64,000 nt of DNA from Prorocentrum cordatum. Lineage: Eukaryota > Sar > Dinophyceae > Prorocentrales > Prorocentraceae. The translations under genes were made by a program, and so were the position numbers. The number at the start of each line of letters is the position of its first letter. Within the stretch, counting starts at the first letter, position 1. Shown in pieces: positions 22,801-51,247 of this stretch. Under the pieces are notes generated by a model that saw nothing but the letters and a program-made list of their open reading frames with translations, searched no databases and had not been told where the DNA came from. The stretch lies in contig CAUYUJ010019273.1 of the NCBI GenBank assembly GCA_963575745.1, positions 1 through 64,000 of the forward strand. The letters are read 5' to 3'.

Positions 22801-24414
22801 TGGGAGGTTTCGCATCCATGGAGGTGGACCAGCCCGCGCGGCCAACAGTACCACATCAAGCCAGGTAACGGCGAAACCGGTCCCGTCACGGGCGACCAGT
22901 CCGCTGTCATAGATATCTTCACCGCGTGCATCACCCAGAAGTACTGGGGGCAGGCGGCCGAATACTACTGTGGGGGAGGAGGAGATGCAGGAGTGGATGT
23001 ACACCAGTTTCGACAGCACGTAGGAGGATGGAGGAGGAGTTCGAAACACCTGCTTACTGCTGCTTATTCTGTTGCCAAGGGTTGCATCTGGCATGGAGCC
23101 AGAAGGTTTAAAGCAGGCATGGCAGGCCCTCCAGGCTGCTGGAGATGTGGGGCCCCGTGTGAAGATGCCTTTCACGCCTATTGGAATTGCCCTGCCCTCA
23201 TTTCCCTGGGACATGAGCATGATGAGATCCGTGACTCGCAACACCTCCTCCCCAAAGCTCGGGCTGAACGAAACAGATTCCCGATCAAATGGTTCCGAGG
23301 ACTCCAGCCGCAGGAGCAGACGGTCGGTTTTCTAGCCTCCAGACCTAGGAACAGCCAGGTGTACGGGACGGGCTGCCTTCGCACGGGCCGCTTCAGTTTC
23401 ACCGAGACCAGGCTTGTGGGCACGGACGGGCCAGGTGGAAAGTTCTCTGCTGACCCCCGCCTTCGACGAGTAGGATGGGGACTTGTTCTCATGGGACGTG
23501 ATAACTGGGCCCAGGGAACCCTATATGGTCTTGCCGCAGGAGCCCAAACTATCAACCGAGGTGAACTTACTGCCGCCATACATGCCTTGGCCCTTGAAGG
23601 GCCCATCGTCATCGTTACCGACAGTGACTATCTCATGAAAGGCGTCCGCAGGGGTGAGCAGTGGAAACATAAAAGTAACACCGACTTGTGGCCTCTCTTT
23701 TGGCAGGCCTATAATGACAGGACCCATCACGTCGCCTTTAAGAAGACCAAGGCGCACGCCACGTTGAGCGACATCAGCGATGGCACCGTGCGCCCCGACT
23801 TTTACATTGCCAACGCCGCCGCCGACGCCGTTGCGCGCAGAGCGGCCGAGTTTTTCGGATTCACGGAGGAGGAGGTTTTGGAGGTCCAGGCCAGGGATAA
23901 GGATATGCAGCTGATCAGATCCCGGCTTGCATGCATCCAAGATCTTAACTGGAAATACGGCCCCAATCTAAAGCAGCAGAAGGTCCCGAAAAGTGCCAAA
24001 ACCCGACGGCTTCGAGAAGCCGAGATGAGCCCGCACTGTATCATCAAAGGGGGGGGTACCACAAGTTGTACCCGCTGTGCTGCTTTTTCTGTCACGCCTT
24101 CTCCAGGATGGGTTTCGCAGGTGTGCTTACCCAGGAAATATATATTTGAAGTCCACCCCTCCCACCACCCCAACATATGCATGGTAAAAGGGGTGGTGTT
24201 ATGTTCCAAGTGTGGGGGGTGGGCAGCCTCTCGAGCCACCAAACTTTCAGGTCCTTGCGAAAAGCCAACAAGTACGGGGATCAAAGCGTCTCGTCGGTTG
24301 TTGCAGGGACAGAAGCCTAAAGGGCTTCTCGAATGGCCCGTGGGACAACTTGCCCATTTAAGAACGCAGGTTGCGACCCGCTGTGGCCTTCCACGAGAGA
24401 AGATAATCTCGTGA
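19813..24414 (+). pseudogene. LINE ORF2: endonuclease, reverse transcriptase, zinc finger, RNase H
   Basis: About 1530 residues if read through two frameshifts. The first Met in the ORF2 frame near the end of ORF1 is at 19813. An APE-like endonuclease comes first: LLLTEVHK, GGDFNMDP, IDYFIVDD, and SPHYGLTM for the catalytic Asp-His. The reverse transcriptase has APGGDGWS, LDLEKFFDSVE (motif A), MLQGCGENCS (motif B) and WVDDLRV (motif C). A stop at 22362 is bypassed in the next frame (KVRKARQAAGYTRLGKIRRL), and the original frame resumes near 22480 (ALRTLRGKLATTMG). Then comes a Cys-Cys-His-Cys finger, CWRCGAPCEDAFHAYWNC, and an RNase H domain with VGTDGPGG, NRGELTAA, VTDSDYL and an AADAVARR end. 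All catalytic residues I looked for are present, so only the two compensating frameshifts stop it being intact. The domain order and the RNase H match I/R1-clade-like LINEs, though clade assignment needs a tree. Confidence 0.88.
22861..22899 (+). repeat. 25-bp insert (copy 2) within LINE ORF2
   Basis: CCAG, then the same 25-bp segment as in ORF1 (GTAACGGCGAAACCGGTCCC and five more bases), then GGGCGACCAG. It encodes GNGETGPVT in both places. It lies between the RT and the zinc finger. Confidence 0.8.
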
Positions 24415-32090: not shown

Positions 32091-32565
32091 ATGGCAGCGG
32101 CCACGGAGCCCCCGCCGCCGCCGCTGCCGCCACCCCTGCCGACGCCGCCCACGGCCATGCCCGCAGCCCACTATGGCGGCATGTGGCCAGTGCAGTACTA
32201 CCCGCCGCAGGCGCAGGGCCAGAGCGGGTGCCCTGTATTACCTACCTATGCCTCCACTGGGTGCGCCCGAGCACTACGGCGGACTCGCCTGGCCAGAGCC
32301 ATTGCCCGCTTGCCAGCAGGGCCAGGGCAAGCGCGAGCTTAAAGGTGTGGGCAAGGGCAAAGGCAAGGGCAAGTTGAAGGGCAAAGGAAACGGGCAGGAC
32401 AAGGGCCAAGAAGGTACTACCGGTCCTTTGAAGTTGCCCCAGAAACCCAATTTGTCGCCAATCGACCTGGCCACGGCGGAGGTTGACTTCTGGAAGAGCA
32501 AAGTCCAGCCGGACCACCCCAAGCTGCTCCAGATTCGTTTGAAGGAAGCCTCTGCAGGCAAGTAG
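32091..32565 (+). pseudogene. Pro-rich, Lys/Gly-rich protein gene broken at a duplication edge
   Basis: It starts MAAATEPPPPPLPPPLPTPP, followed by AAHYGGMWPVQYYPPQAQGQ. At about 32220 the frame changes, and the likely continuation is YYLPMPPLGAPEHYGGLAWP, then a Lys/Gly repeat (KGKGKGKLKGKGNGQDKGQ) and a conserved-looking tail (DLATAEVDFWKSKVQPDHP) ending LKEASAGK. The break falls exactly where the 1.6-kb tandem duplication unit begins (32219). The family is not recognised; the basic repeat suggests nucleic-acid binding, which is inference. Confidence 0.5.
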
Positions 32566-33843
32566 TTGAGGTAGTTTGGATTCTTAGGGTCGTTTTGGTG
32601 GCGGTCACAATTTTGAGCCAGAGTGGCTGTCTCAAGTGTGACCGTTTTGGTGCCGTGCACTTGGAGTGTGTGGCGGCATCCTTGTTTCGCACGCGCACGC
32701 AGAGAGTCTAATCGGCACGATAGCTTTGCACCGGAATCTCGAGCATTCTCTTCCAGCCTCTCTCCTCCCTGCCCTCTTGCCGATCCCGCCCGGGGTCCGC
32801 GTAGTAGTAGAAGCCGCAGCAAGAGAGGGATACATTTTCCCCAGTTTCGTATCATCCAGGATCGGTGCCTCGTGATCCCAAGGGGGGCATGATTTGTCCG
32901 CCCGCTCTGGGTGTCACGGACTACCCTTGGGGTAGAAGCCGTAGCAAGAGAGGGAGCCATTCTCCCCAGTTTCGTATCATCCAAGTTCGGTGCCTCGTGA
33001 TCCCGAGGGGGAGCATGATTTGTCCGCCCGCTTTGGATGTCACAGTATACCCCTGGGGTCCTGGTAGCAATAGGCAGCGGTAGACAGCACATGCTAGGCT
33101 AACAATCCCACTAAGTGGGACAGCAGCTACGGCATCAACAATCCTACTGAGTGGGATAGCAGCTTTATGCGATACGCAGCAACATGCGTAGACAATTGTA
33201 TACCCTATATCCGAGCGTGGCGGGGGCGAATTCCATTCCCCAGCCACGCCAGAGGGGGTTAGAGGAGGGTGGAGTCCGAACGCGGGCTGGGGCAAATGGC
33301 ATTCCCCAGCCACGCCAAAGGGGCACAGAAAGGTGACCCCTCATGCTGGGGAGCTGGTCCCCCTTACCTCGTGCGTTGGCCCTTCACGCTGGGGATTGCA
33401 CCTCTCGCGCGTTGACCCCTCATGCTGGGGACTGTACCCCTCATGAGTCGCGCTGTCGTGCTCGCGTCTCGCCCGTCATGATGTCGTGCTTTCCCAACGG
33501 GTGGCTTTCGGCCGTGCCTGGAGAGAACACCGGTGAGTTGGGCAGCTTACCGGTGCATTGAGACTGTTTTGGCCGTACCTGGAGCTCAAATTCAGCGGCA
33601 GGGAGGCGCGCGGACGCATTAGGGGTCCGATTGCTCCCCTGAGGGGAACCGCTGGGCAGTGCACGGCTGCAGATTTAGTATGTGTGCGGACCACTACGGA
33701 GGCAAGTTCGCTTCCCCGACTTGGGATGCCACCCTGTAGGAGCCCGGATTTGACCAGATCACCAGAGGGCATGGGGTGAGGAGGGGGCGGTGGACAGAGA
33801 AGGCGATAGAGAGGTGGAGCATCGACCGGTGCTCCTCGCTGAG
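32219..33843. repeat. Tandem duplication, unit 1 (1.6 kb)
   Basis: A 1625-bp segment repeated almost without change at 33844-35440. It includes the 3' half of the Lys/Gly-rich gene and a 125-bp internal tandem repeat (two copies at 32810 and 32935 with TTTCGTATCATCCA and GGTGCCTCGTGATCCC). Confidence 0.92.
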
Positions 33844-35440
33844 CCAGAGCGGGTGCCCTGTATTACCTACCTATGCCTCCACTGGGTGCGCCCGAGCACT
33901 ACGGCGGACTCGCCTGGCCAGAGCCATTGCCCGGTTGCCAGCAGGGCCAGGGCAAACGCGAGCCCAAAGGTGTGGGCAAGGGCAAATGCAAGGGCAAGTT
34001 GAAGGGCAAAGGAAACGGGCAGGACAAGGGCCAAGATGGTACTACCGGTCCTTTGAAGTTGCCCCAGAAGCCCAATTTGTCGCCAATCGACCTGGCCACG
34101 GCGGAGGTTGACTTCTGGAAGAGCAAAGTCCAGCCGGACCACCCCAAGCTGCTCCAGATTCGTTTGAAGGAAGCCTCTGCAGGCAAGTAGTTGAGGTAGT
34201 TTGGATTCTTAGGGTCGTTTTGGTGGCGGTCACAATTTTGAGCCAGAGTGGCTGTCTCAAGTGTGACCGTTTTGGTGCCGTGCACTTGGAGTGTGTGGCG
34301 GCATCCTTGTTTCGCACGCGCACGCAGAGAGTCTAATCGGCACGATAGCTTTGCACCGGAATCTCGAGCATTCTCTTCCAGCCTCTCTCCTCCCTGCCCT
34401 CTTGCCGATCCCGCCCGGGGTCCGCGTAGTAGTAGAAGCCGCAGCAAGAGATGGATACATTTTCCCCAGTTTCGTATCATCCAGGATCGGTGCCTCGTGA
34501 TCCCAAGGGGGGCATGATTTGTCCGCCCGCTCTGGGTGTCACGGACTACCCTTGGGGTAGAAGCCGTAGCAAGAGAGGGAGCCATTCTCCCCAGTTTCGT
34601 ATCATCAAAGTTCGGTGCCTCGTGATCCCGAGGGGGAGCATGATTTGTCCGCCCGCTTTGGATGTCACAGTATACCCCTGGGGTCCTGGTAGCAATAGGC
34701 AGCGGTAGACAGCACATGCTAGGCTAACAATCCCACAATCCTACTGAGTGGGATAGCAGCTTTATGCGATACGCAGCAACATGCGTAGACAATTGTATAC
34801 CCTATATCCGAGCGTGGCGGGGGCGAATTCCATTCCCCAGCCACGCCAGAGGGGGTTAGAGGAGGGTGGAGTCCGAACGCGGGCTGGGGCAAATGGCATT
34901 CCCCAGCCACGCCAAAGGGGCACAGAAAGGTGACCCCTCATGCTGGGGAGCTGGTCCCCCTTACCTCGTGCGTTGGCCCTTCACGCTGGGGATTGCACCT
35001 CTCGCGCGTTGACCCCTCATGCTGGGGACTGTACCCCTCATGAGTCGCGCTGTCGTGCTCGCGTCTCGCCCGTCATGATGTCGTGCTTTCCCAACGGGTG
35101 GCTTTCGGCCGTGCCTGGAGAGAACACCGGTGAGTTGGGCAGCTTACCGGTGCATTGAGGCTGTTTTGGCCGTACCTGGAGCTCAAATTCAGCGGCAGGG
35201 AGGCGCGCGGACGCATTAGGGGTCCGATTGCTCCCCTGAGGGGAACCGCTGGGCAGTGCACGGCTGCAGATTTAGTATGTGTGCGGACCACTACGGAGGC
35301 AAGTTCGCTTCCCCGACTTGGGATGCCACCCTGTAGGAGCCCGGATTTGACCAGATCACCAGAGGGCATGGGGTGAGGAGGGGGCGGTGGACAGAGAAGG
35401 CGATAGAGAGGTGGAGCATCGACCGGTGCTCCTCGCTGAG
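33844..35440. repeat. Tandem duplication, unit 2
   Basis: A near-identical copy of 32219-33843. The main difference is a 28-bp deletion near 34735, inside a short ATCC-CTGAGTGGGA-type repeat (33105-33165 in unit 1). Only scattered single-base changes are seen, so it is recent. Confidence 0.92.
33873..34190 (+). CDS. Duplicated 3' part of the Lys/Gly-rich gene
   Basis: 105 residues from MPPLGAPEHYGGLAWPEPLP to LKEASAGK, the second copy of the C-terminal part of the gene at 32091-32565, with a few substitutions (for example Glu to Asp after GQDKGQ). It lacks the original 5' end, so it is probably not a functional gene unless it is started from the internal Met. Confidence 0.45.
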   Translation: MPPLGAPEHYGGLAWPEPLPGCQQGQGKREPKGVGKGKCKGKLKGKGNGQDKGQDGTTGPLKLPQKPNLSPIDLATAEVDFWKSKVQPDHPKLLQIRLKEASAGK

Positions 35441-35727
35441 CACCTCAATATCATTGCTGTCCTCCGCCCCCCGCTTTAGGCCGCGTGGCAGGTTTCTCGC
35501 ATCGGCCAGACCCCGCTTCCCTAGGGGCTGAGTTGTGTGAGCCCGACCCACGGCCCAAGGGTACATCCGTGACAATCCTCCTCCTCCTCCTACTCCTCCT
35601 CCTCCTCCTCCTCCTCTCCTTTCTTCCCCGGTCGTCGTCTTCGCCGTCGTCCTCCCTATGCGGAGGAGGGGGGGATACTCAGGAATATGCTTGTGAACGT
35701 TCGGGGGGCGCGTGCCCATACGTATCC
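35441..35727. other. Spacer with a short TCC tract
   Basis: Unique sequence with a CTCCTC tract at 35577-35626. The adjacent TCTTCGCCGTCGTCCT and GAACGTTCGGGGGGCGCG words are also found near 45075-45120 and 48490-48540, so this is a diverged piece of the same repeat family. Confidence 0.45.
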
Positions 35728-36581: not shown

Positions 36582-36639
36582 TGCTCCTTCTTATCCCCAT
36601 CGCGCCCGCTGATTGCAGTCGTCTGCAGCTTCTCGGCCC
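36582..36639 (+). repeat. Split direct repeat A1
   Basis: 58 bp starting TGCTCCTTCTTATCCCCATC and ending TCTCGGCCC, identical to 44603-44660. It is the left end of the element. Confidence 0.95.
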
Positions 36640-37340
36640 GATAGCTGCCCCGCTCGCCCCCCACTCCCCTCCCCGCGCGCGCGCGGCCGGGGCGCCAGGG
36701 GCCCGCGGGGCCATCGCCGTTCAGGTTTCCTCGACACCTACGCGGCGATCGTCGACTCCGGGTTCGCCACCCCGCGCTGGCCCAAGTCGGTCGGGCCGGC
36801 GCCTGTGGCCCGTACGACGAGAGCGAGCGTCGGGGCCGACCGTCCGTTCTGAGCGGTGGTCGGTCGGGCAGGCGCGCCTTTCGGCACCCTGCCTGCCGTG
36901 GCCACTGGGCCTTGCTAGCACCGTCGCTGCTCGCTCTTCGGCGGGCGGTGCGGACAGGGCCCATGCCACGTCCTGCCGTTGGCAGGTCTCTCCAGCCTGC
37001 ACCAGTCTGGTGGTCTTCGGCGCTCTCCACGCCGACTTCGGCGCAAAACTCCTCTCCCTCCTCCTTCGCCTTCTCCCCCTTGGCCTTTGGGGCGGCGGAG
37101 CAGGAGGCCCATCTGAGGAGAGGAGTAGGAGGGGGGCCTCACACGCCGCAGCGCCGCGCCTTGCGCCGTGGCGCAGCGCCAGCCCTCGTCTCGGGCGTTC
37201 AAAGTGCCGCCGCGCCTGGGGTCTCAGCCGCCGCTTCTACGCAAGACTTTCAGCCGCCGCGACAGAGACGCCCGACGGAGGGCACAGTGGCCAAAGGCGC
37301 TCCGACGCGCCGCCCAAGGGCTTCAGCCGCCGCGCAAGCC

Positions 37341-40300
37341 ATGCCCGCCATTCCTGCTGCCAGCGAACCCAATGCCAGCGTGTTCAACGCCGAAGCACCA
37401 GAGGGGTGCCCTGCGAAGATAACTGCGCTCTTGGGAAGGGAAGTGGTGGACGAGGATCTCTCTTACCTCCCCCCAACTCCTTCTCCTTGCCTCTACTCCG
37501 CCACCTGGCTCACCTGTGCCGCTAGGCATGGCGACCACTTTGTGGGCCCCGCCTGCTCCACCGTGGGCGGGGGAGCGTCACTCGCGGGGCACACGGGCTT
37601 TGCCGCCGCCTCGGTTTCCTGGCCTTCGGCTGGAGGCATCGCCGCGGCCACTTCTGCCGACGATGCTGCTCGGACCGCCGGGGGCGGATACATTCGCGCA
37701 CCTCCAGGCTTGGACCCGCTGCCTCCTGGGCCTCCGGTCAGGCAGATTGGGCCGCCTCCGGGCCTTGACGTCTTGGAGGTTGGTTCCCAGAGGCTCAGTG
37801 CGGCATGCCCGCGCCGTGGCGCGGCTGCGGCTTGGAGCCCCACGGTCGTCTATCAGGTCCGACCTGGGGCCACGGCGTCAGAGGCCGCGCTTCCTCTACT
37901 GAGGACGCCGCCTCCGCCGCCACAGGGTCGCCCCTGGAGCGGTGCGTTGGCCCTGGTGGAGGCGGGGTGCTCCGTCGTCCCTCCTCGGGGTTCTTCGGCG
38001 GCCATGTCCGACTGCGGCCTTGACGGGGGTAGTCCCTCCTTTTCGAGGGCGGCGCCGCGGTGTGGCTCGAAAGGGGTTGGTATGCGCCCTGCCAGCGATG
38101 CTGATACGGCCCCGCAGGGAGGGGCTCGTACCGCCCCCCCAGCCGCCACCGCAGTCCACCAGCCTGGCACCCCGCCGCGGAGCGGCCCCAGGGCCACCTC
38201 GGCCTTACGCGCCGACCTCCACTTGTGGGACCTGCACACGGGCTCCGACACTCAGGGTGTGGATCCGCCGCCAGGCCTCTCCGGCTCCGAAGCAGGCTCA
38301 CGGGTGCCGCCTTTGGTCGACCTCCGCGCGGCCCTTGCCTCGGATGGGGTGCAGCTGTTTAGCAGCGGGAGTATGCCGTGCACTGCGGCGTCGCCACTTC
38401 TGTCCGAGCGCTTCACGGTCGCCGACGGTGACCGCGCGGCCAGCGGAACACCCCTGAGCGCGGACTGGCATCGTGTCTCCGGGGATTCGCCCTCCCAGGC
38501 CAGGCATCTGAGGCCACCGTCCGGAGTTGCCGTCCCAGAAGCGGATGTTCATGCGCCGCCGCCGCTCCACCGTAGCGCGGTTGGTCCCGCCTCACTTCGG
38601 GCGGGCGCTGCCCGTGGGCGCATGTGGTATGGTGAGCGCGCAGGGCTCCTGCCTTTCACTAACCTCGAGGGCGGTGTCGGCGCGCCAGCTGCCGGAGGGC
38701 CACCTCCCCAGTCAAGCGCCCGGGGCGCTTGCACTTGTAACGCAGCGGGCACTCAAGCAGCGGAGTCAACTCCAGGCCTCGTCGGCTCCGCCGCGGGCTC
38801 CTCGGGTGAAGGCGTCGCCGCAGCCGCAGCCATTCCAGCGCGGCCCCGACGCCTCTCGTGCGATCGGATCCAGGGCCTCGCCGCGTCGATCCCTGCTCGC
38901 GCTCGCGAGCGCCTGCTGGCCGACCCTCGTGGTCTGAGCTCTTCTCCGTCACCACTGGTAGGCATGCGCCCTTCCAGCGATGCTGTTACGGCCCCGCAGG
39001 GAGGGGTTCGTGCCGCCGGTGGGAAGTCAGGAGCGGGCTCGTCCACGGCGGCCGCGACGCCCCGGGATGCGGTCCCTGCGTTCTGCTCTGTCCGAGGGGC
39101 CGCTTTCGCCACGGGCTCCTCGGGCGAATGCGCCGCCGCAGCCGTTGCCACTCCAGCGCGGCCCCGACGCCTCTCGTGCGATCGGATCCAGGGCCTCGCC
39201 GCGTCGATCCCTGCTCGCGCTCGCGAGCGCCTGCGGGCCGACCCTCGTGGTCTGAGCCCTTCTCCGTCCCCACTGGTCGGCATGCGCCCCTCCAGCGATG
39301 CTGTTACGGCCCCGCAGGGAGGGGTTCGTGCCGCCGGTGGGACGTCAGGAGCGGGCTCGTCCGCGGCGGCCGCGACTCCCCGGGATGCGGTCCCTGCGTT
39401 CCGCTCTGTCCGAGGGGCCGCTTTCGCCGCGGGCTCCTCGGATGAAGGCGTCGCCGCAGTCACTGCCACTCCAGCGCGGCCCCGACGCCGCTCGGCCTCC
39501 ACCAACAGCGCTGCCGCACTCCCCGCCTTCAGGCTCCGACGAGTTCGTCGGGTCCGCACTCGGCGTGGAGGACGGCGGGGTCGTCGGGCCGTCGATGGTA
39601 GCTGCCGTGCCGCTCACGCTCCAGCCCATGCTGGTGCAGCTGCCTCGTCTTCGGACGCCCTTTCTGGTGCTTCAGAGGCCGCTTCTGGGGCCCCTGTCCA
39701 AGGGAGCCGCCGCTCGCGCTTCAATCGGAGCGTGCGCGAGGATGCGGCAGCAATGTTGCGCTTCGGAAGTGCACCGCCCGTTGTCGTGCCTCCTGCGGCT
39801 GGAGCCCCGCCACGGTTTTCAGCTTCAGCCGAAGCTGCGGGGGCCCCGTCGGTAGGCATGTGCTCTGCCGGCGATGCTGGTGCGGCCCCGCAGGAAGGGG
39901 CTCGTGCCGCCGACGGGGTCACCGCGGAGGGGGGTGCACGCGCCGCCCAGGCCAGCGGCTACCAAGGCGGAGCCCCCGACGAGCCTCCTCGGCTCCAAGC
40001 TGTCGGTGGCCCTGCCCTGGACCAAGAGGGCTCCGGGCAGCCCCGAGCCGGCCCCGCCGACCAAGGTGCCTCTTACCCCCAATCTGTTGGAGCCGCCCAC
40101 GTCGGGCGGGTCGAACGGGGTGCTGGATGTGCTCGGCCGCCGCCGCCGGGGAGGTCTCATCCCGCGGCCGCCGCCCGCCGCTTCTGGACCGAGCGAGGTC
40201 GCGATGGTAGGGATGCGCAGGTGCAGCGCGGCTGTTTCGGCGCCGCTGGGCCCCGTGCGTTGTTGAGCTCGCTCGTGGGGCGGTGTTGTCCGCAGCGACA

Positions 40301-40490
40301 TCAGTTCGCACCTGTCACAAGAATTGTGGCGGCGCTCCGAGCGCGGCGGCTGGCATACTCGTCTCCACGACCGCCACTTGCTCATGGTTCTGAGCCGCGG
40401 GGAACCTTTAGGCCCCGAGCTGACCCAGATACACCGCGAGGTGGGGCTTCCCTCCCTCGAGCTCCCCATCGCACCGCGCTGGGTCAGTGA
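37341..40490 (+). CDS. YR element ORF A: Pro/Gly/Ala-rich protein with 106-residue repeats
   Basis: The frame is open from before 36912; the Met at 37341 (MPAIPAASEPNASVFNAEAP) is a reasonable start. The protein is low in complexity, with recurring APPGLDPLPPG/PPPGLDV motifs. A ~20-residue motif, VGMRPSSDAVTAPQGG followed by VRAAGG, recurs at DNA positions 38080, 38962, 39280 and 39856, and again in ORF B at 41228. Between 38962 and 39280 a 318-bp (106-residue) unit is tandemly repeated, including RPRRLSCDRIQGLAAS. I see no RT motifs; its position suggests a gag-like role. It overlaps ORF B by about 167 bp in another frame. Confidence 0.55.
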   Translation: MPAIPAASEPNASVFNAEAPEGCPAKITALLGREVVDEDLSYLPPTPSPCLYSATWLTCAARHGDHFVGPACSTVGGGASLAGHTGFAAASVSWPSAGGIAAATSADDAARTAGGGYIRAPPGLDPLPPGPPVRQIGPPPGLDVLEVGSQRLSAACPRRGAAAAWSPTVVYQVRPGATASEAALPLLRTPPPPPQGRPWSGALALVEAGCSVVPPRGSSAAMSDCGLDGGSPSFSRAAPRCGSKGVGMRPASDADTAPQGGARTAPPAATAVHQPGTPPRSGPRATSALRADLHLWDLHTGSDTQGVDPPPGLSGSEAGSRVPPLVDLRAALASDGVQLFSSGSMPCTAASPLLSERFTVADGDRAASGTPLSADWHRVSGDSPSQARHLRPPSGVAVPEADVHAPPPLHRSAVGPASLRAGAARGRMWYGERAGLLPFTNLEGGVGAPAAGGPPPQSSARGACTCNAAGTQAAESTPGLVGSAAGSSGEGVAAAAAIPARPRRLSCDRIQGLAASIPARARERLLADPRGLSSSPSPLVGMRPSSDAVTAPQGGVRAAGGKSGAGSSTAAATPRDAVPAFCSVRGAAFATGSSGECAAAAVATPARPRRLSCDRIQGLAASIPARARERLRADPRGLSPSPSPLVGMRPSSDAVTAPQGGVRAAGGTSGAGSSAAAATPRDAVPAFRSVRGAAFAAGSSDEGVAAVTATPARPRRRSASTNSAAALPAFRLRRVRRVRTRRGGRRGRRAVDGSCRAAHAPAHAGAAASSSDALSGASEAASGAPVQGSRRSRFNRSVREDAAAMLRFGSAPPVVVPPAAGAPPRFSASAEAAGAPSVGMCSAGDAGAAPQEGARAADGVTAEGGARAAQASGYQGGAPDEPPRLQAVGGPALDQEGSGQPRAGPADQGASYPQSVGAAHVGRVERGAGCARPPPPGRSHPAAAARRFWTERGRDGRDAQVQRGCFGAAGPRALLSSLVGRCCPQRHQFAPVTRIVAALRARRLAYSSPRPPLAHGSEPRGTFRPRADPDTPRGGASLPRAPHRTALGQ

Positions 40491-43400
40491 GCTGTCGGAG
40501 GCGCTGCGTTTCCGTTTGGCCTACAAGTGGGAATTCCGCACGCCCCGCCACATCAATATCCTGGAGACCACCGTGTTCAAGAGTCTGTGCAAGTACTGTT
40601 GCATCCGCAACCCTGACTCACGGATCCCTGTTCTCTTGGATTCCCAAGTGGCACTAGGCGCGGCCGCCCACGGTCGGAGCAGCAGCCCTGGCCTTTCGCA
40701 CGTGTTGAGCACCTGCTTGCCCTACATTTTGGGGGGCGGGCTCTACATGGGCGGGCTCTACGTCCCGACCGACGTCCACCGAGCGGACGACCCCACGCGC
40801 AATCGCCCTGTTCGCCCCCCCTCGCGTGTCGAGCCTGCTTGGTTGCTTGACATAGACGAGGGTCGCTTTGAGCGATTCGACATGATAGCGGCCGCCGACG
40901 CCGCCTCCGCGTACCCGACTTGTCTGTGGGGCCGGTGCGTGCTGCAAGTTCTGGCTCGCAGCCCCGCCGCGGGCGCAGGCCCGCTCGGGCACCCCGAGGA
41001 TCGCCACGTGGGAGCGCCAGCCCGGGTCGACGGGGGCGACGCGACGGCCTCCGCCGAGGCCCGCGACGCATATGAAAGCGCCGCGCCGCGCAGGGGGGCT
41101 CCTGTCTCCGTCAAGGTGCCCTCGAGCGCGGCGGCGGTGAGCTTCTCCGCGTCGCGCTGCACTCGCGCCCGTGACAGCCTGCCGGCCGCCCCTCGGGTAC
41201 CAAGCCCTTCGCCGTCCCCGCCGGTAGGCATGCGCCCTTCCAGCGATGCTGTTGCGGCCCCGCAGGGAGGGGTTCGCGCCGCCGGTGGAGGGCCAGGAGA
41301 GGGCGCGCCCGAGCGGAGGTCACGCGCCAAGAGCGACGCAATCGCCGCTGCTCGACCTGGTACGCCCAAGGGGGACGCTCACCCCGTCTCGCTTCTGTCG
41401 GAGGCGAACGGCTCGGCTCCAGCTTCGTTGGGGGGTCTTCTGGGTCGTCCGTCCGTCACGACTCAGACTCGCCACCGCCAAGATCGTGCTGCCAAACTTG
41501 TTGCCGCGCTCGATTTGCTCCACCTGGAGCGCGGTGCGACCACTGATCGCGTGAACGCTCAGTTTCGACGGATGGGTTGGGCCTGCCATCCCGACCGCGA
41601 TAAGTCGATCGAGGCCAGCAGGAAATGGCGTGCTCTCTGTGACGCCGAAGCCTTCCTCCTCGGGCCTGGGCGCGATGTTACCGGCCCCGATGCCCCGGCC
41701 TCTGGCGGCGCTACTCGCCGTGCTTTGGGCAGAGGGCTCTTGGCGGCGGGAAGGCGTGACGACGCGAACCGCTCGCGCGGGGTCGCCACCCGGGATTCGG
41801 CTCTCGACGCCTCCCTCGGTGCTCGCCTCCGCGGCATGCCGGGGGAGCGTCGGAGCGCCCCTGGCGCGTCTCCAGACGCAGAGCCGAGCGCGGTCGCTAG
41901 CTGCAGCGACCCAGGGTCGCGGGCTGCGCCACGTTGTACGGTGCAGACCCCCGCGATGCCTACTGCCGCCATGCGACGCACGCAAGCTCGCCCGGAGGCC
42001 GACCTGGGGGCCGCCCGTACCGCGGCCGCGGTGCTCCCGCCCTTTCGAGCCAGCACCCTGCCCCCCCTGCCAGGGTGCCGCGCCGACGCCCATAGCGTCG
42101 CGCCGCGCGCCAGCTCTGCACCTGCCCTGCTGGCCGGGCGCTCGCTGGGCGCAGCGGCTATGCTGCGTGCTACCCGCGAGCGGACTGCCAGTGCGGCCGC
42201 CGCCGGGGCGGCACATCACAGGGCCGTGCTTCCGTGGGGCCACAGCGCAGAGCGCAGCGAGGTGTCGCCGGCTCCCAGCTTTGCCGACTCCTGCTGCGCC
42301 GGCCAGCGTGCCGACTCTTGCGCCGCCCAGCTCACCGCGTCCCGCGGCGACCAGCTCACTGACTTGCAGCCCTCCAAGCTCACCGACTCCCGCACCGACC
42401 AGCTCGCCGACTCCCGCGCCGACCAGATCGCCGACTCGCGTGCCGAGGGGCTCGCCGACGCCCGCACCGACCAGCTCGCTGACGCCTTCACCCGTTCCGA
42501 CTCCCGTGCCGATCCTCTCACCGGATTAGCATTGCGCACCAGCCGGGTCGTTGGCCCGACGGCCACGGTTGCGAGGCGCGTGCGTGACGAACGGCGCGCT
42601 CTGGCGCGGTTCCGTGCCTCGGTCGATGTTCTCGACGCCGCTCTTACCGAAGTTGAATTCGGTCGAGGCGCGGAGGCTTGGGGTCCAAGTGCAGGAGAGC
42701 TGGCTGAGCTTTTGCAGACGACACTGGCCGAGCTCGAGCGCCAGAAGGCTGCGTTGCGCATCGCCCGCTCTCGCACTGCCGAGTGCGTCAGAGGGTCCGC
42801 TTCCGCCTCGGGCTTTTCGGGTGGAGGCGCCGCCGCAGCCGCTGCCGGCGCACCCCCGAGAGCTCCCGCCACGGCTGGTAGCGCTACTTTTGCAGCTCAA
42901 GCGAAGGAGCGTGCGGATAAGCACACGGCTAGCTATCGCGACGTGGTCGAGGCTAGGGCTCATTCGGGCGCCCAGGCGTCGCATCCGCGCAAGCGCCGTG
43001 GCGTCGGGCGCCCGTGCTCTGCGGCGCCCGTCACGCCACGGACCGCCATTAGTTGCGATGAGCGCTCCCGCTCCGCAGCACCTGCCGCCGCCCGCTCGGC
43101 CGCGTTTTCCGAGACGCTGTGCGCTGTTGACCGCAGGCGGCGCGAGCACTCCCCAGGACTCAGGCCTCTGATCCTGGACGGCACGGACCGCCAGCCGGAA
43201 GCCGCGCCGAGCACCGGCGAGGTCGTCGAGGCCCCCCGCGCCGAGCAACGCGGCCGCACCTCGCGTCGCAAGCGCAGGCGTGTTCGGGCTTCCGCCGGAG
43301 CGGCAGCTACCACTCCTGCCAATCCCTCTGGTCAAGAGCCGCCCGCGTCAGCCTTCGTGGCAGGGCGCCAGGACTGGCCTGCCTCTCTGGAGCCTGCCCT

Positions 43401-44427
43401 TCCCGAGGGGGCTTCCGAGGCCCTCGGGGTGAAGGTGGAGAGCCACTCTCGGCGCGTCCCCTCTTGCGGCGACCAGCGCACTCGTTCGCTTAAGGCGTTT
43501 GACGTGTGGTGCGCCGAGCACACAGGAGTGGCACTTGCCACATGGGCTCGCAGCGGCATCTTGCTCGGGAGAGCGCTCGCGACCTTCGGCGTGTGGTTGT
43601 ACGATGCTGGCTTCCCCCGCCTCGTCCTCGTGAATGCGATCCGGGGAGCACAGGCCCTTCAGCCCCACTGGAGGGGCTTCCTCACCGAGGCGTGGGATGT
43701 GGCGGAGCGGTGGATCCCTTCCAAGCCTCCCTGTCCCCTCCCACCGCTACCGCGTGCTCTGCTGCGCGCCATGGTAGCGTTGTGCCTCGCATGGGACTGG
43801 CCGGATATGGCCACCCTGCTGCTTGCCGGGTTCACTATGTCCGTGAGGCCTGGTGAGTTGGCAACCGCCCGCCGGAGCGACCTCACTCTGCCCATTGACC
43901 GCCGTGAGTCCACGGGCGACGCTTTGCTGAGCATCTCTGTTCCGGAGGCCCGGGGGTCTGGCGGAGAGCGTCAACACGCTCGGTGCTCCGATCGTGCTGT
44001 GGTCAGGATGATGGAGCTGGTCTTTAGAGATTTGAGTCCCACCGATCCCCTATTGACCTTCGGTCAAAGCGGCTTCCGCACTCGGTGGCTCGATCTTCTT
44101 TCGGCGCTGGGCGTCCCGCTCGCCAGAGCGCCATCGGGGTTCGATCTGTCCCCTGCGCTGCGCTTCAGAACCGATATTTCGGACGGCATTAATCGCGTCT
44201 TCTGGCGTGATCGCTGGCGGCTAGCTTCCAGTACAGAGCGCTATCTCCACGATGCTGCCGCCTCTGCAGTCCTCCCATCATTGGCTGAAGCCGCTCGGGA
44301 CCGCGTTTCTTACCTCGCCGAAGCAAGCGACCTCCTCGTCGCATCCTTTCTGAATGTTGGCCCAGCTGTGTGGCCCATTCAGCTCGCGGCCGCCCGCCGA
44401 AACCTTGTCACTTCGCAAGGGCTTTGA
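40324..44427 (+). CDS. YR element ORF B: RNase H-like, J-domain-like, tyrosine recombinase polyprotein
   Basis: A 1367-residue uninterrupted ORF. The frame is open back to 40267 (SDISSHLSQELWRRS), which looks like part of the same domain, so expression may depend on a frameshift from ORF A. RNase H-like domain: HINILE (Glu81), VLLDSQVALG (Asp106), and VHRADDPTR near residues 151-159. J-domain-like segment at about residues 392-440: LDLLHLERGATTDRVNAQF, then the MGWACHPDRDKS loop with His-Pro-Asp at 422-424. A long Ala/Arg-rich linker has repeated SRTDQLADSRADQ-type heptamers (about residues 670-740). The tyrosine recombinase is C-terminal: SVRPGELATARRSDL (Arg1175), SPALRFRTDISDG (Arg1280, with Pro where the box-II His is usual), DRWR, and ERYLHDAA (Tyr1307). 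In Ngaro/DIRS elements the recombinase integrates a circular DNA intermediate. The missing His could weaken catalysis. Confidence 0.78.
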   Translation: MWRRSERGGWHTRLHDRHLLMVLSRGEPLGPELTQIHREVGLPSLELPIAPRWVSELSEALRFRLAYKWEFRTPRHINILETTVFKSLCKYCCIRNPDSRIPVLLDSQVALGAAAHGRSSSPGLSHVLSTCLPYILGGGLYMGGLYVPTDVHRADDPTRNRPVRPPSRVEPAWLLDIDEGRFERFDMIAAADAASAYPTCLWGRCVLQVLARSPAAGAGPLGHPEDRHVGAPARVDGGDATASAEARDAYESAAPRRGAPVSVKVPSSAAAVSFSASRCTRARDSLPAAPRVPSPSPSPPVGMRPSSDAVAAPQGGVRAAGGGPGEGAPERRSRAKSDAIAAARPGTPKGDAHPVSLLSEANGSAPASLGGLLGRPSVTTQTRHRQDRAAKLVAALDLLHLERGATTDRVNAQFRRMGWACHPDRDKSIEASRKWRALCDAEAFLLGPGRDVTGPDAPASGGATRRALGRGLLAAGRRDDANRSRGVATRDSALDASLGARLRGMPGERRSAPGASPDAEPSAVASCSDPGSRAAPRCTVQTPAMPTAAMRRTQARPEADLGAARTAAAVLPPFRASTLPPLPGCRADAHSVAPRASSAPALLAGRSLGAAAMLRATRERTASAAAAGAAHHRAVLPWGHSAERSEVSPAPSFADSCCAGQRADSCAAQLTASRGDQLTDLQPSKLTDSRTDQLADSRADQIADSRAEGLADARTDQLADAFTRSDSRADPLTGLALRTSRVVGPTATVARRVRDERRALARFRASVDVLDAALTEVEFGRGAEAWGPSAGELAELLQTTLAELERQKAALRIARSRTAECVRGSASASGFSGGGAAAAAAGAPPRAPATAGSATFAAQAKERADKHTASYRDVVEARAHSGAQASHPRKRRGVGRPCSAAPVTPRTAISCDERSRSAAPAAARSAAFSETLCAVDRRRREHSPGLRPLILDGTDRQPEAAPSTGEVVEAPRAEQRGRTSRRKRRRVRASAGAAATTPANPSGQEPPASAFVAGRQDWPASLEPALPEGASEALGVKVESHSRRVPSCGDQRTRSLKAFDVWCAEHTGVALATWARSGILLGRALATFGVWLYDAGFPRLVLVNAIRGAQALQPHWRGFLTEAWDVAERWIPSKPPCPLPPLPRALLRAMVALCLAWDWPDMATLLLAGFTMSVRPGELATARRSDLTLPIDRRESTGDALLSISVPEARGSGGERQHARCSDRAVVRMMELVFRDLSPTDPLLTFGQSGFRTRWLDLLSALGVPLARAPSGFDLSPALRFRTDISDGINRVFWRDRWRLASSTERYLHDAAASAVLPSLAEAARDRVSYLAEASDLLVASFLNVGPAVWPIQLAAARRNLVTSQGL

Positions 44428-44438
44428 GCCTGGGTATG

Positions 44439-44602
44439 GCTGCTGCGGCCTCCCTTGGCCGCCCGGGTGCCCTCGTTGGACGAGGCCGCCTGAGAGCGTC
44501 GCACGGCCCGCCCGCGTAGGCCTGTCCCGCTTTACGGGCCGCCGCGGGCGCGCGCCGCGCGTTCGCCCTGAGACGACTGCTCACTTGCGCAGCGTGCGGG
44601 GA
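44439..44602 (+). repeat. Split direct repeat B1
   Basis: 164 bp starting GCTGCTGCGGCCTCCCTTGG and ending GCAGCGTGCGGGGA, repeated at 44704-44867. It begins 12 bp after the ORF B stop and abuts A2 directly. Confidence 0.95.
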
Positions 44603-44660
44603 TGCTCCTTCTTATCCCCATCGCGCCCGCTGATTGCAGTCGTCTGCAGCTTCTCGGCCC
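44603..44660 (+). repeat. Split direct repeat A2
   Basis: 58 bp identical to the left end of the element. The junction GCGGGGA/TGCTCC with B1 equals the sequence expected if the right and left ends of the element were joined in a circle. Confidence 0.95.
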
Positions 44661-44703
44661 CCTCCCTCTCTCCTCCCTCCTTCTTCGAAGGCTGACCTGC
44701 GGC

Positions 44704-44867
44704 GCTGCTGCGGCCTCCCTTGGCCGCCCGGGTGCCCTCGTTGGACGAGGCCGCCTGAGAGCGTCGCACGGCCCGCCCGCGTAGGCCTGTCCCGCTTTAC
44801 GGGCCGCCGCGGGCGCGCGCCGCGCGTTCGCCCTGAGACGACTGCTCACTTGCGCAGCGTGCGGGGA
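44704..44867 (+). repeat. Split direct repeat B2 (right end of element)
   Basis: A second copy of B1. It is followed immediately by TTTTTCCCCTCCTGCTCC, which in the empty copy follows CGTCGTCC at 48285. Confidence 0.95.
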
Positions 44868-46284: not shown

Positions 46285-46306
46285 TCCGTAGCCATTTTGG
46301 TTCAAG
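46285..46306 (+). other. Spliced leader of the truncated retrogene copy
   Basis: Matches 21 of 22 positions (GGTTC instead of GGCTC). Identical to the copy at 49701. Confidence 0.9.
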
Positions 46307-47440: not shown

Positions 47441-49684
47441 CCCATGGGGACCATTCGCTTGTGAGCATTCGGAGAGCTCGCCTGTATTACATTTGATCGC
47501 GATGGTGCTGCCTGTTCTTGCGCAATTATTCCTTTTCACGCGCTTCCCGTACATGTCAGAAAAGGTTTGAAAAAAAAACGAGTTTTTCGCCTGAGGCATC
47601 GTCGCCAAATCGTGAAGCCGGGGGTCGTATCTGAAGACGTCGTTTGCTAAACATGGGAGTTTCGCCTGAGACACCCTCGAACAACTGGGATGCGCCAGTA
47701 GCTCTTGTAAGGCATCGTTTCGGAACGATCTCGGATGACCTCCAAGATTGCCCAAGAAGCGAAATTATTCAACAACCCATGGGGCTTGAACACTTTCGTT
47801 TAATAATCAGCGTTTCGCTCGAGACATCCCCTAAACAAATCCTTCGAACGGGCCCTCAAAACTATTTGTTTTTTTCCGCCTCCTTCTCCTCCTCCTCCTC
47901 TTCCTCCTCCTCCTCCTTCTCCTCCTTCTTCTCCTCCTTTTCCTCCTCCTCCTCCTCCTCCTCCTCCTCCTCCTCCTGTTCTTCCTCCTCCTCATCCTCA
48001 TCTCCTCCTCATCCTCATCTCCTCCTCTTCCTCCTTCTCCTCTTCCTTCTCCTCGCCTTCTTCCTCCTTCTCCTTCCTCCTCCTCCTCGGTCTCCTCTTC
48101 CTCTTCCTCATCCTCCTCCTTCTCCTGCTCCTGTTCTTCCGCCTCCTCCTCGTCCTCTTCCTCCTCCCTCTCCTCCTCCTCCTCCTCCTCCTCCTCCTCC
48201 TCCTCCTCCTCCTCCTCCTCCTCCTCCTCCTCCTCCTCCTCCCGTTTTTCTTCCTTCCCCTTCTCCTCCTCCTCCTCGTCGTCCTTTTTCCCCTCCTGCT
48301 CCTGTTCCTCCTCTTCCTCGTCCTCCTCCCCCTCCCCTCCTCACCCTCTTCTTCTGCTGCTGATGCTCCTTTTCCTCCTCCTCCTCCTCCTCCTCCTCCT
48401 CCTCCTCCTCCTCCTCCTCCTCCCCTCCCCTCCTCCTCCTCCTCCTCCTCCTCCTCCTCCTGGTCCTCCTCTCCCTTCTTTCCCGTTCGTCATCTTCGCC
48501 GTCGTCCTCGCGCGGAGGTGAACGCTCGGGGGGCGCGTGTCGATACGTATCCCTTGAGAGCGTTCGGAGAGCTCGCCTGTATCAGATGTGATCGCGATGA
48601 TGCTGCAAGTTCTTGCGCAACTCTTCCCTTTCACGCGCTTCCCGTTCATGTCAGGAAAGGTTCCCCAGAATGGCGATTTCGCCTGGGACATCCTCACAAC
48701 ATTGACATCTCCGCGACACGCGTTTAACAACAAGAAGCATTTCGCTCGAGACATTCTCGAAACGCTGACCGCCGCGAATTTCATGCATCTGTAAAAGTTG
48801 CGTTTCGCGCGAGACATCCTAGCCAAAATGAGGTGTCGACGGAGGTGGATTACCATCTCTTATGTTGAAAACTACGTTTTCGCTAGGGACGTCCTCAGAA
48901 CATGAGCGGCAGCACGGCGGACCAGAAATACGAGCACGGCAGAACATTTGCATTTCGCTGGGGACATCTTTAAACCATGCGATGTTCTCAACATCGTCTT
49001 GACATCGTACTCGAAGTGCTTCATGAAGGAGGAATGAGAGCCCAACAAGGACCCACAGACGGCTCCAAGAGCGCCCTGAAGAGTGCTGGGCATGATGATT
49101 TCGCTAGGGACATCCTCAAACAAATGACAATAGACAGCAGCATCGTTTTGACAACTGCTGTTCTAACATCGTCGTGGGGTCGCTCTTGAGAAGGTTTCCA
49201 GGCGTCCTAAGCCAGGCTTCTAAATATGACAATTTAGCTGGGGACATCCTCAAACAAGAGATGCGTGATGCGTGTTACATCGCATTGGCATCGTTTGGAT
49301 GGCATCCAAACGGCCCCGAACGAGCTCCAAACGAGCCCCAAAATGATCCCAAGGGTGACCTCGATATTCATCATCATGAGTCTTTCGCTCGATACATCCT
49401 CAAAACATGAGTTGTTCGCAACACCGTCTTTCACAAAACCAAGCATTTCGCCTGAGACATCCACCAGAAAATGAACACCGCGAATTTAGCAAGCGTATGG
49501 AAATAGGGACACCGCCTGAGACATTCTAGAAAACACGCGATGCTGAAAAGGCTGAACTTTTCGCCTGGGACATCTTCAGAACATGGGCAGCATCACGGCA
49601 GCCCAGCACGCAGAGGCAGTGCAGAACGCGCGAGAGCACGTGAGAATACACAGGAGCACGGCAGAACACACAGGAGCACGGCAG

Positions 49685-49698
49685 AACCGAAAGATTAC
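49685..49698 (+). repeat. Target-site duplication, left (AACCGAAAGATTAC)
   Basis: A 14-bp word two bases before the spliced leader; the identical word is at 51433-51446 after the gene. It marks the edges of a retroposed mRNA. Confidence 0.85.
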
Positions 49699-49700
49699 CC

Positions 49701-49722
49701 TCCGTAGCCATTTTGGTTCAAG
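49701..49722 (+). other. Spliced leader at the 5' end of the retrogene
   Basis: 21 of 22 positions match the dinoflagellate spliced leader. It is separated from the target-site duplication by only two bases (CC), as expected if a full-length trans-spliced mRNA was inserted. Confidence 0.93.
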
Positions 49723-49766
49723 CCATTTCCCGTGGCCCGCCCTTCGGTCTCCCGTGCTGTGCGCGC

Positions 49767-51247
49767 ATGGCCGTGAGGGTGCCGCTGGAGGGTGCGGGCT
49801 TGGGAGCGATGGCAGCGGGGAGACGGCCGTGGCGGCCGTCTGAGGCGGTGTGGAGGCCTCAGCGCGTGCGGCGGGCCGCACAGCGCTGGGCGGCCCTCTC
49901 CCGCGAGCGCCTGGTGGAGCGCCAGGCGTCCGAGTTCGTGGAGCTGCGGAGCCTGGCATCGGCCCCCCCCAGCGTCCTGCGCCGCCTGGCGCTTGTGGCG
50001 CCCGTGCTGATCGCCCAGGAGCACGGCGGGCCACTGGAGGAGGAGCGCATCCTCGAGCGCAATGTGGGGTGCCACGCGCGGGTCCTCCCGCGGCCTGGCG
50101 CCCCGCGGGCCGCCTGGAGGAGGGCGCAGCGCGGGCCGCGCCTTCCGTGCCCGAGGTCGGCCGTAGCGGCGAGCTCAGCGGAGGTGGAGCCGCGGGCTGT
50201 GGGCGCAGATGCCATTCACGTCGCTGATCTTGAAGCGGAGCTCCTGGCGGAGGCTGACGCCCAGGCGAGCGGCGGTGCGTTCCCTCCCCCGCCAGGCGTT
50301 TGGCTGGTCGCTGACCCACTGGCTGGGGCGAGGGCCTTCCGGGAGGGCTTCGACGCGGGCTGGCGCCTTGCTGGGACGGCCTCCGGCGCTCCGCGGGGCG
50401 GCGACGGCGTGGTGCTGCAGGAGCAGTGCGTGCCCTCCTCGTCCTTCGCGGCGTATGGGAGGTCTGCTGCGACGGTGCGTGCGGCGGCGGGCAGCCTGCC
50501 CCTGCCGCCAGGGCAGAGCCTGGCCCTCCCCGTGAGGGGGTCTGGGAGGCAGGCGCGGCGATGGAGGAGGACGGCAGGGCCGCCCTCCATGCGCCGTGTC
50601 GTGCGCGCGATGGTGTGCAAGGCGGTACTGCAGGCGAGAGAGCGCCGCGGCCGCCGCTGCTTCTGGAGAGCCTGGCGGGCCCAGGCAGCGACGACGGCTT
50701 CGATACCTACGACTCGGCCCTGGGAGAGGCGGAGCACGGGAGCACGGCATTGCACGGCAGCGGCGACGGCTTCGGTGTCGGCTACCCTGAAGCGGAGCAG
50801 GACTTCGGCTTTCATGCCCGTATGAGGGCCAGCGGCGAAGCTTGGCGGGCTGCCCTGGAAGCCCGTCTGAGGGCCAGGGATGAAGCCTGGGAGGCCAGCC
50901 TCGAGGAGTCGATCGAGGTGGAGCCCCAGGAACACGGCGAGGACAGCTTCGTGGGGGACTCGGAGTTCGAGGATCTCGGGTCTGAGCACGGGCAGTTCCT
51001 GCGTGACGAGTTCTCGGACGGCAGCGAGCAGGCCGCGGAGTACGAGCTTGCGCGCGCTGCCTGGCTGGAGCGCACGGGCTCCAGGCGCGAGGACGCTGAA
51101 AGCAGCCTCGAGGCCGATGCCCCTGGCGTGCGTGCGCAGGGGCGGCTGGCTGCGACCGAGGCGGCCCAGGCGGCAATCCTGAGCGGCGATCTGGCCGAGG
51201 GGCTGCGGTTGCTCGAGGCGGCTCAGGTCTTCGGCCAGGCTGAGTGA
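49767..51247 (+). pseudogene. Hypothetical protein, complete retroposed mRNA, frameshifted
   Basis: It starts MAVRVPLEGAGLGAMAAGRR, 44 bp after the spliced leader. The first frame runs to 50825 and includes DLEAELLAEADAQASGG and GARAFREGFDAGWRLAG. From about 50680 a second frame gives the better protein: GSDDGFDTYDSALGEAE, RASGEAWRAALEARLRARDE, an acidic region, and RLAATEAAQAAILSGDL, to the stop at 51247. A single frameshift near 50650-50690 would join them (about 490 residues). The protein is Ala/Arg/Glu-rich and mostly helical; I do not recognise it. The ~185-bp 3' UTR ends CTTTAACTTTAACTT without a clear poly-A. Confidence 0.6.

What the first reader, a model, noticed from the sequence alone, without database searches (positions are those of the whole stretch)
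36582..44867. Complete tyrosine-recombinase retroelement with A1-B1A2-B2 split direct repeats and an exact empty site 3.4 kb downstream
Seen: a 58-bp repeat (36582-36639) is identical at 44603-44660. A 164-bp repeat at 44439-44602 recurs at 44704-44867, and B1 directly abuts A2. The flank CGTCGTCC before A1 and TTTTTCCCC after B2 are joined without change at 48284/48285 in a duplicated copy of the locus. There is no target-site duplication. Known: split direct repeats, a tyrosine recombinase and absence of target-site duplication define Ngaro/PAT-like elements of the DIRS order. Inference: the B1A2 junction equals a circle junction, with crossover at a T shared by target and element. I know of no description of this particular dinoflagellate element.
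Basis: partly seen in the sequence, partly recalled or inferred. Interest (0 to 1): 0.95.

Follow-up and report, generated by a model that had tools for sequence, protein, structure and literature searches.

The report
Microsatellite-targeting dinoflagellate tyrosine-recombinase retrotransposon
A jumping gene of a dinoflagellate alga, seen here in dozens of nearly identical copies, inserts itself in exact step into three-letter DNA repeats, and the copy in this window has lost its copying enzyme.

Summary
The repeats, junctions and empty site are exactly as reported: A1-internal-B1A2-B2, 8,286 bp, no target duplication. 'Complete' is wrong for this copy. The window's genome (unnamed, 4.13 Gb) has 40 scored places with the B1A2 block, the window included. 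Of 20 other copies fetched, 18 carry about 2 kb that the window lacks at 40260/40268; it encodes reverse transcriptase. In 13 of the 18 one frame runs through RT, RNase H, a DnaJ-like segment and the tyrosine recombinase; the window's two ORFs are broken halves of it. The family is a split-direct-repeat member of the DIRS order; closest published kin: SymbioDIRS. New: insertion is phased. At 29 distinct sites T follows B2 in 29, and recurs at +4 (28), +7 (27) and +10 (26), mostly in triplet repeats. The A end reads TGC TCC TTC TTA TCC, so the circle junction mimics the target. The recombinase lacks a lysine found in 117 of 117 relatives compared, yet shows purifying selection among copies (7 synonymous, 2 non-synonymous). 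The mechanism is inferred, not shown.

The parts
36582..36639 (+). A1, left terminal repeat; begins TGC TCC TTC TTA TCC (T at 1, 4, 7, 10, 13)
36645..40490 (+). ORF1, 1281 aa, Ala/Pro/Gly/Arg-rich, no Pfam or NCBIfam match; in 13 of 18 longer copies the same frame runs on into RT
40261..40267 (.). deletion junction: about 2 kb with RT is present here in 18 of 20 fetched copies and missing in the window
40267..44427 (+). ORF2, 1386 aa, 3' part of the broken frame
40267..40887 (+). RNase H remnant; homology starts just after the first catalytic Asp of relatives (TGA at 40264-40266 here)
41512..41658 (+). DnaJ-like (J) segment with HPD at 41587
   Evidence: Pfam PF00226: E 4.4e-4 on ORF2; E 6.8e-6, 26.5 bits against cut-off 27.8, on an 87-aa piece
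43558..44298 (+). tyrosine recombinase domain (R1194, E1227 in place of Lys, R1299, Y1326 of ORF2)
   Evidence: profile i-E 3.1e-39; alignment; fold
44439..44602 (+). B1
44598..44619 (+). B1|A2 junction core GGGGA-TGCTCCTTCTTA-TCCCC: 5-bp inverted arms around four TNN triplets (inferred recombination site)
   Evidence: sequence; function inferred
44603..44660 (+). A2
44661..44703 (+). 43-bp spacer between A2 and B2
44704..44867 (+). B2, right terminal repeat, ends GGGGA; the next base, T, is target
48284..48285 (.). empty site in the duplicated locus 47455-50101

Best explanation
The feature is one copy of a young, multi-copy retrotransposon family of a dinoflagellate, of the tyrosine-recombinase (DIRS) order with split direct repeats. 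Longer copies measure 9,980-10,349 bp (10,349 in 6 of 15 measured), and most of those fetched keep one long frame with RT, RNase H, a DnaJ-like segment and a tyrosine recombinase. The window copy lost about 2 kb with RT, before or after it inserted. Inferred cycle: the RNA is reverse transcribed; B1A2 serves as the template that joins the B and A ends into a circle; the recombinase exchanges the B|A junction with a genomic site. The site must show T at every third base in phase with the A end (T1, T4, T7, often T10), so triplet repeats such as (TCC)n and (TCA)n are preferred. Exchange at the phase T leaves no duplication and an exact empty site. Shown: anatomy, copies, RT in longer copies, target phase, lack of duplication. 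Inferred: RNA step, circle, crossover position, role of the T phase.
For: Repeats and empty site exact. 40 scored places with B1A2, 29 at full score. The RT profile matches the extra segment in 18 of 18 copies that have it, E 9.5e-45 to 1.1e-53, and nothing in six frames of the window (best E 2.2). One frame open across the whole fetched stretch in 13 of 18. The RT tree (53 rows) places the family inside a clade of relatives. Target: of 33 right flanks plus the window, 29 are distinct; T at +1 29, +4 28, +7 27, +10 26, +13 22. T1+T4+T7 together in 26 of 29 against 1.74% of positions on both strands of the window, binomial about 6e-43. Left flanks are in the same phase: T at -3 in 13, -6 in 13, -9 in 14, -12 in 15 of 16 (15 distinct). 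In 8 sites that are not regular arrays T1 holds in 8 and T1,4,7 in 5 (P 2e-4 given T1). Recombinase: the AlphaFold model's best PDB matches are Cre and XerA chains, best E 1.6e-3, probability 1.00, none at E 0.001 or below; 7 synonymous and 2 non-synonymous differences among 13 open copies (P 0.0035).
Against: No circle, RNA or protein was observed. The 3' end was read at 36 of the 39 places besides the window; 33 have an exact B2 end. Of the other three, L048 has a truncated B2; L054 (TATATGT) breaks the phase at +4 and L060 (TCCTGTA) at +7, though both start with T. Within the 29, L010 and the window break it at +7 and L025 at +4. The background is one window, not the genome. Left ends were found for 15 of 18 copies with an exact A start; L026 has one with a mismatch and was left out, L017 and L024 gave none. 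Outside the recombinase the differences are near neutral (RT 17 syn, 27 non-syn, P 0.098). Internal repeats of ORF1 and ORF2 differ equally at the three codon positions. The DnaJ-like segment is just under Pfam's cut-off, and its fold model found no J domain.
Confidence: 0.85

Rival explanations
1. The window copy belongs to an RT-less lineage that moved by borrowing RT (and perhaps recombinase) from full copies; the deletion came before insertion.
For: Ends intact, A1=A2 and B1=B2 with 0 of 222 differences, so a deleted copy could still have been mobilised.
Against: None of the 20 fetched copies shares this deletion, so there is no sign of an expanded RT-less lineage. Deletion after insertion explains the same data. 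0 of 222 is only mildly unexpected even if the insertion is as old as the flank duplication (about 2.3 differences expected from 19 mismatches in 1817).
Confidence: 0.3
2. The triplet-repeat pattern is passive: insertions elsewhere were lost by selection, or triplet arrays are simply abundant; the recombinase has no such specificity.
For: The window is rich in TCC arrays (alignment; T1,4,7 at 1.74% of positions).
Against: Abundance cannot fix the phase: T follows B2 at 29 of 29 sites on the element's coding strand. Sites outside regular arrays keep the phase in part: T1 8 of 8, T1,4,7 5 of 8.
Confidence: 0.08
3. A YR-only DNA transposon (Crypton-like) that moves without an RNA step.
For: The window copy alone has a recombinase and no RT.
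Against: 18 of 20 fetched copies carry RT, in 13 of 18 in one frame with RNase H and the recombinase; A-B-A-B repeats.
Confidence: 0.03
4. The empty site at 48284/48285 arose by precise excision, not by insertion into one duplicate.
For: Recombinase exchange without duplication is reversible in principle (general knowledge of tyrosine recombinases).
Against: Needs an extra step; the sequence leaves no trace either way.
Confidence: 0.1
5. The 2-kb gap in the window copy is an assembly error.
For: No reads available; bases around the junction differ from the longer copies.
Against: A 7-base patch (40261-40267) sits at the junction, unlike a clean collapse.
Confidence: 0.1

Closest known systems
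SymbioDIRS / SymbioDIRS-Dnmt3 of Symbiodinium (de Mendoza et al. 2018, PMC5890265; passages seen)
   Same: dinoflagellate host, A-coding-B-A-B repeats, RT, RNase H, tyrosine recombinase, an RT that Pfam handles poorly (stated; Pfam gave nothing for 27 relatives). That the relatives are of this kind is inferred from their make-up and the Symbiodinium names of some
   Different: no long insert between the RNase H halves such as P0121, P0123, P0124 and P0125 have (its methylase-like nature judged by eye); RT to recombinase in one frame; DnaJ-like segment; recombinase on a long branch (2.25, median 0.32); triplet target phase, which the passages seen do not mention
PAT and Ngaro retrotransposons (PMC4157794, PMC3783388; passages seen)
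   Same: A1-B1A2-B2 split direct repeats; RT, RNase H and tyrosine recombinase in the family
   Different: host group; methyltransferase (a mark of PAT in PMC4157794) not found but poorly testable; not placed by a tree with PAT, Ngaro or VIPER references
DIRS-1 and DIRS1-like elements (PMC3266345, PMC5006619; passages seen)
   Same: circle-junction model, recombination at a short shared motif, no duplication, a target preference
   Different: inverted repeats and a 3-bp junction there; DIRS-1 prefers its own copies, this family prefers T-phased triplets
Majaniviruses and other endogenous nimaviruses with tyrosine recombinases (PMC10871703; abstract and passages seen)
   Same: works alike: a tyrosine recombinase that inserts into simple repeats
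   Different: large DNA viruses, pentanucleotide (TAACC)n; according to that paper not closely related to DIRS recombinases

Membership tests
DIRS-order, split-direct-repeat (PAT/Ngaro-like) retrotransposon | A1-B1A2-B2 split direct repeats | tested here: met
   window; A1 with 58 of 58 also found for 15 longer copies, B1A2 and B2
DIRS-order, split-direct-repeat (PAT/Ngaro-like) retrotransposon | tyrosine recombinase domain | tested here: met
   profile i-E 3.1e-39, best fold matches Cre and XerA
DIRS-order, split-direct-repeat (PAT/Ngaro-like) retrotransposon | reverse transcriptase in the family | tested here: met
   18 of 18 longer copies, 18 of 20 fetched
DIRS-order, split-direct-repeat (PAT/Ngaro-like) retrotransposon | reverse transcriptase in the window copy | tested here: not met
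   no hit in six frames; deletion
DIRS-order, split-direct-repeat (PAT/Ngaro-like) retrotransposon | no target-site duplication | tested here: met
   window empty site; left and right flank share 0 nt at the ends in 9 of 16 pairs; the other 7 share 1, 4, 6 or 18 nt, mostly within arrays
DIRS-order, split-direct-repeat (PAT/Ngaro-like) retrotransposon | circular DNA intermediate | not testable with these tools
   none
PAT (as opposed to Ngaro) | methyltransferase domain | tested here: inconclusive
   Pfam finds none in the window ORFs, but Pfam also finds nothing in 27 relatives; longer copies were not scanned
PAT (as opposed to Ngaro) | recombinase or RT phylogeny with reference PAT, Ngaro, VIPER, Crypton | not tested
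   no reference sequences were at hand; trees hold only hits and our sequence
SymbioDIRS-Dnmt3 | cytosine methyltransferase domain in Pol | tested here: inconclusive
   the RNase H halves lie next to each other, without the long insert of P0121, P0123-P0125; no profile able to see this domain was at hand
Crypton | recombinase only, no RT | tested here: not met
   family level
J-domain protein | match to the DnaJ profile above cut-off, with HPD | tested here: inconclusive
   HPD text found in 18 of 18 longer copies; 26.5 bits against cut-off 27.8; fold search lists no J domain

The most novel reading that the evidence does not exclude
A tyrosine-recombinase retrotransposon whose circle junction is itself a short triplet repeat, GGGGA-(TNN)4-TCCCC, so that any T-phased triplet microsatellite is an attachment site. 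Its recombinase has left its clade: the lysine found in 117 of 117 relatives compared is glutamate and a short stretch after the second arginine is missing, while RT and RNase H stayed ordinary. The change of recombinase may be what opened triplet repeats, which abound in this dinoflagellate DNA, as a safe and self-renewing target.
Probability: 0.5. Interest if true: 0.78.

Novelty: new variant of a known kind. Interest (0 to 1): 0.64.

Why it matters
To my knowledge, target choice by tyrosine-recombinase retrotransposons is known for few elements. Here dozens of young copies give the target rule to the base, and the rule matches the element's own junction, so the crossover can be tested directly. 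It also ties a mobile element to triplet microsatellites in a giant dinoflagellate genome, and offers a recombinase that seems to work without a residue conserved in all 117 relatives compared.

Tried and rejected
Reading of the element as an RT-less lineage with a decayed recombinase: held until; given up when the copies showed RT in 18 of 20 and the same Glu in place of Lys in 20 of 20.

Hidden frameshift in the recombinase: none seen. DnaJ-like segment in relatives: phmmer against 187 proteins gave best E 0.011 for a whole protein and no convincing single domain. Fold search with the single-sequence J model (pLDDT 67.6): no J domain in the Foldseek list or among the 83 chains of VIA-align; inconclusive. 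Codon-position test on the internal repeats: no excess of third-position differences.

Related loci in viral and prokaryote collections: none confirmed in 5 scans. Pfam on 27 relatives: no family. NCBIfam: only DnaJ models, below their cut-offs.

Empty sites of other copies (one asked, L025): the search did not complete. RT-bearing relatives elsewhere in this genome by protein search: not completed.

Paper searches for prior reports. The listings (some capped: 10 of 13, 12 of 13 and 15 of 43 papers) and abstract starts showed no DIRS-type element that targets triplet repeats and none with a J domain. Subscription papers and Repbase reports are not held, so this is no proof of absence. Passages only were seen of PMC5890265, PMC6338049, PMC3783388, PMC4157794, PMC6681497, PMC3266345, PMC10871703, PMC3627910, PMC5753468 and PMC5006619.
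Full report
OBSERVATION. The stated repeats are exact: A1 36582-36639 equals A2 44603-44660, B1 44439-44602 equals B2 44704-44867, B1 touches A2, and 43 unique bases separate A2 from B2. Joining the two flanks gives the sequence at 48284/48285 without a change. The locus is duplicated: the right flank differs from its copy at 19 places in 1817 compared, the left by 15 mismatches and 57 gap columns in 872.

HOST. The window carries an exact 21-base dinoflagellate spliced leader at 18772-18792, two copies with one mismatch and two with three (the motif is recalled). Of the relatives that bear an organism name, several are Symbiodinium and one Amphidinium carterae. The window is G000:C18424:1-64000 of a 4,128,499,153-base assembly in 21,875 contigs, unnamed.

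CODING CONTENT OF THE WINDOW COPY. Two long frames, 1281 and 1386 aa, exceed the longest frame in 1000 Markov simulations of the same stretch (833 aa). The one protein found for the recombinase region is P0001 (33%), which also matches the RNase H part. Searches with P0001 and with the RNase H region gave 253 (120 listed) and 68 relatives, 187 proteins in hand. Profiles built from 74 of the 120 hit the RNase H part of ORF2 (E 3e-19) and no RT in any frame of the window. RT is present in 176 of the 187 relatives at E 1e-5. In the seven relatives aligned, RNase H homology starts at or next to the residue after the catalytic aspartate; a TGA stands in that place here.

THE FAMILY. After eight busy answers the genome search worked once. 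Its table has 81 rows: 40 full B1A2 matches plus matches to B2 and pieces; 400 first-look candidates, 40 scored. Twenty copies were fetched. In 18 of 20 an additional segment (2014 to 2064 bp by the measure) lies between the window's 40260 and 40268; L009 and L014 are other shortened copies. The segment matches the RT profile at E 9.5e-45 to 1.1e-53 in 18 of 18; in L010 its catalytic motif reads LNIDDHTG. The aspartate motif DASLGW of RNase H was found by text in 17 of 18 (not in L013). In 13 of 18 one frame stays open over the whole fetched stretch, 2695 aa from about element position 1821 to the end, through RT, RNase H, the DnaJ-like segment and the recombinase; L013, L015, L022, L025 and L028 are interrupted. 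By position this is the frame of the window's ORF1. So the window's ORF1 and ORF2 are halves of one frame. The frame upstream of position 1821 was not read in longer copies. Full lengths could be measured for 15 copies: 10,349 bp in 6, 9,980-10,345 in 9.

THE RECOMBINASE. Profile score 131 bits. An AlphaFold2 model with 22 relatives (pLDDT 81) has Cre and XerA chains as its best PDB matches, top E 1.6e-3 with probability 1.00, none at 0.001 or below. Against 117 relatives (131 had a hit, 14 short ones were dropped) it keeps both arginines and the tyrosine, but the lysine found in 117 of 117 is glutamate and the stretch aligned with GGA after the second arginine is missing. All 20 fetched copies have the same glutamate. 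In the recombinase tree (64 rows) its branch is 2.25 against a median of 0.32, place unresolved, while RT of copy L010 sits with length 0.66 beside P0122 (support 99/96, 53 rows). At RNase H identity of 45-50%, 629 pairs of relatives have recombinase identity of at least 35.7% (median 46.9), whereas our 6 pairs lie at 27.6-31.5%. Among 13 open copies the recombinase has 7 synonymous and 2 non-synonymous differences, against a neutral non-synonymous share of 0.709 (P 0.0035). RT has 17 and 27 (P 0.098), RNase H 2 and 4, first linker 5 and 8, DnaJ-like part 0 and 1, second linker 7 and 16: little or no sign of constraint there at this small divergence. Internal repeats of the two ORFs show none either.

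TARGET. Right flanks were read at 36 of the 39 places besides the window: 33 have an exact B2 end, L048 is truncated, L054 and L060 have a changed B2 end. Of the 33 plus the window, 29 are distinct over 40 bases (arrays that read alike are merged, and L050=L013 and L062=L021 look like duplicated loci). T stands at +1 in 29, +4 in 28, +7 in 27, +10 in 26, +13 in 22 of 29. The positions between follow no such rule (2 to 20 of 29 match the A end at positions 2 to 15). T at +1, +4 and +7 together: 26 of 29, against 1.74% of positions on both strands of the window. Left flanks of 15 copies plus the window (15 distinct) show T at -3 in 13, -6 in 13, -9 in 14, -12 in 15 of 16. Eight sites are not regular arrays (under 55% identity at distance three over 24 bases); T1 8 of 8, T1,4,7 5 of 8. 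Exceptions: L010 and the window at +7, L025 at +4, and, outside the 29, L054 at +4 and L060 at +7. The A end reads TGC TCC TTC TTA TCC. Left targets do not resemble the B end beyond A at -1 in 7 of 15 and one position at -10 (9 of 15).

MECHANISM. Shown: the anatomy, the RT-bearing kin, absence of duplication, the phase rule. Inferred: RNA copy, B1A2-templated circle in analogy to the model for DIRS1-like elements (PMC3266345, passages), exchange at the phase T of the B|A junction. The junction core GGGGA-TGCTCCTTCTTA-TCCCC has 5-bp inverted arms round four TNN triplets; a match this short could be chance, and its role is a guess.

COMPARISON. The published SymbioDIRS-Dnmt3 elements have the same A-coding-B-A-B order in Symbiodinium (PMC5890265, passages). 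PAT and Ngaro share split direct repeats and are told apart by a methyltransferase (PMC4157794, passages; Ngaro order also in PMC3783388). Simple-repeat targeting by a tyrosine recombinase is on record for nimaviruses (PMC10871703) and self-targeting for DIRS-1 (PMC5006619). None of the papers listed reports triplet-repeat targeting by a DIRS-type element in its title or abstract start; the lists of the last three are capped.

VERDICT. Observation confirmed; 'complete' rejected for this copy; the family is a new variant of a known kind, with a target rule for which I found no earlier report. The DnaJ-like segment is a probable but unproven addition.

Noticed in passing
18772-18792; 46286-46306; 49702-49722; 8522-8542; 10247-10267: Spliced-leader relics (0, 1, 1, 3 and 3 mismatches; mean 0.00 in 100 shuffles). 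The exact one stands directly before a LINE-like ORF with weak endonuclease and RT matches (18778-22362) followed by an RNase H ORF (22438-24414); two lie in the duplicated flank of the element.
   Followed up: partly
relatives P0121, P0123, P0124, P0125, P0126, P0129, P0185: Seven of 187 relatives carry a 2A-like motif D(V/I)ExNPGP (recalled motif), in the first six between RNase H and recombinase, and 104 carry GEAx(N/H)PGP; NPG is absent from the window ORFs and NPGP from the frame of L010.
   Followed up: partly
L009 4332-4430: In this shortened copy A1 is preceded by the last 41 bases of B, and B2 is doubled in part: a tandem or self-insertion product that would fit a B|A circle junction.
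   Followed up: no
38059, 38941, 39259, 39835, 41207: A repeat encoding VGMRPSSDAVTAPQGGVRAAGG and variants recurs five times in the frame, partly in a 318-bp tandem unit whose copy number seems to differ between copies.
   Followed up: partly
15474-16598: ORF matching fatty acid desaturase (E 1.2e-9).
   Followed up: no
32212-33844 and 33837-35441: Tandem duplication of 1.6 kb at 97.6% identity upstream of the element's left flank.
   Followed up: no
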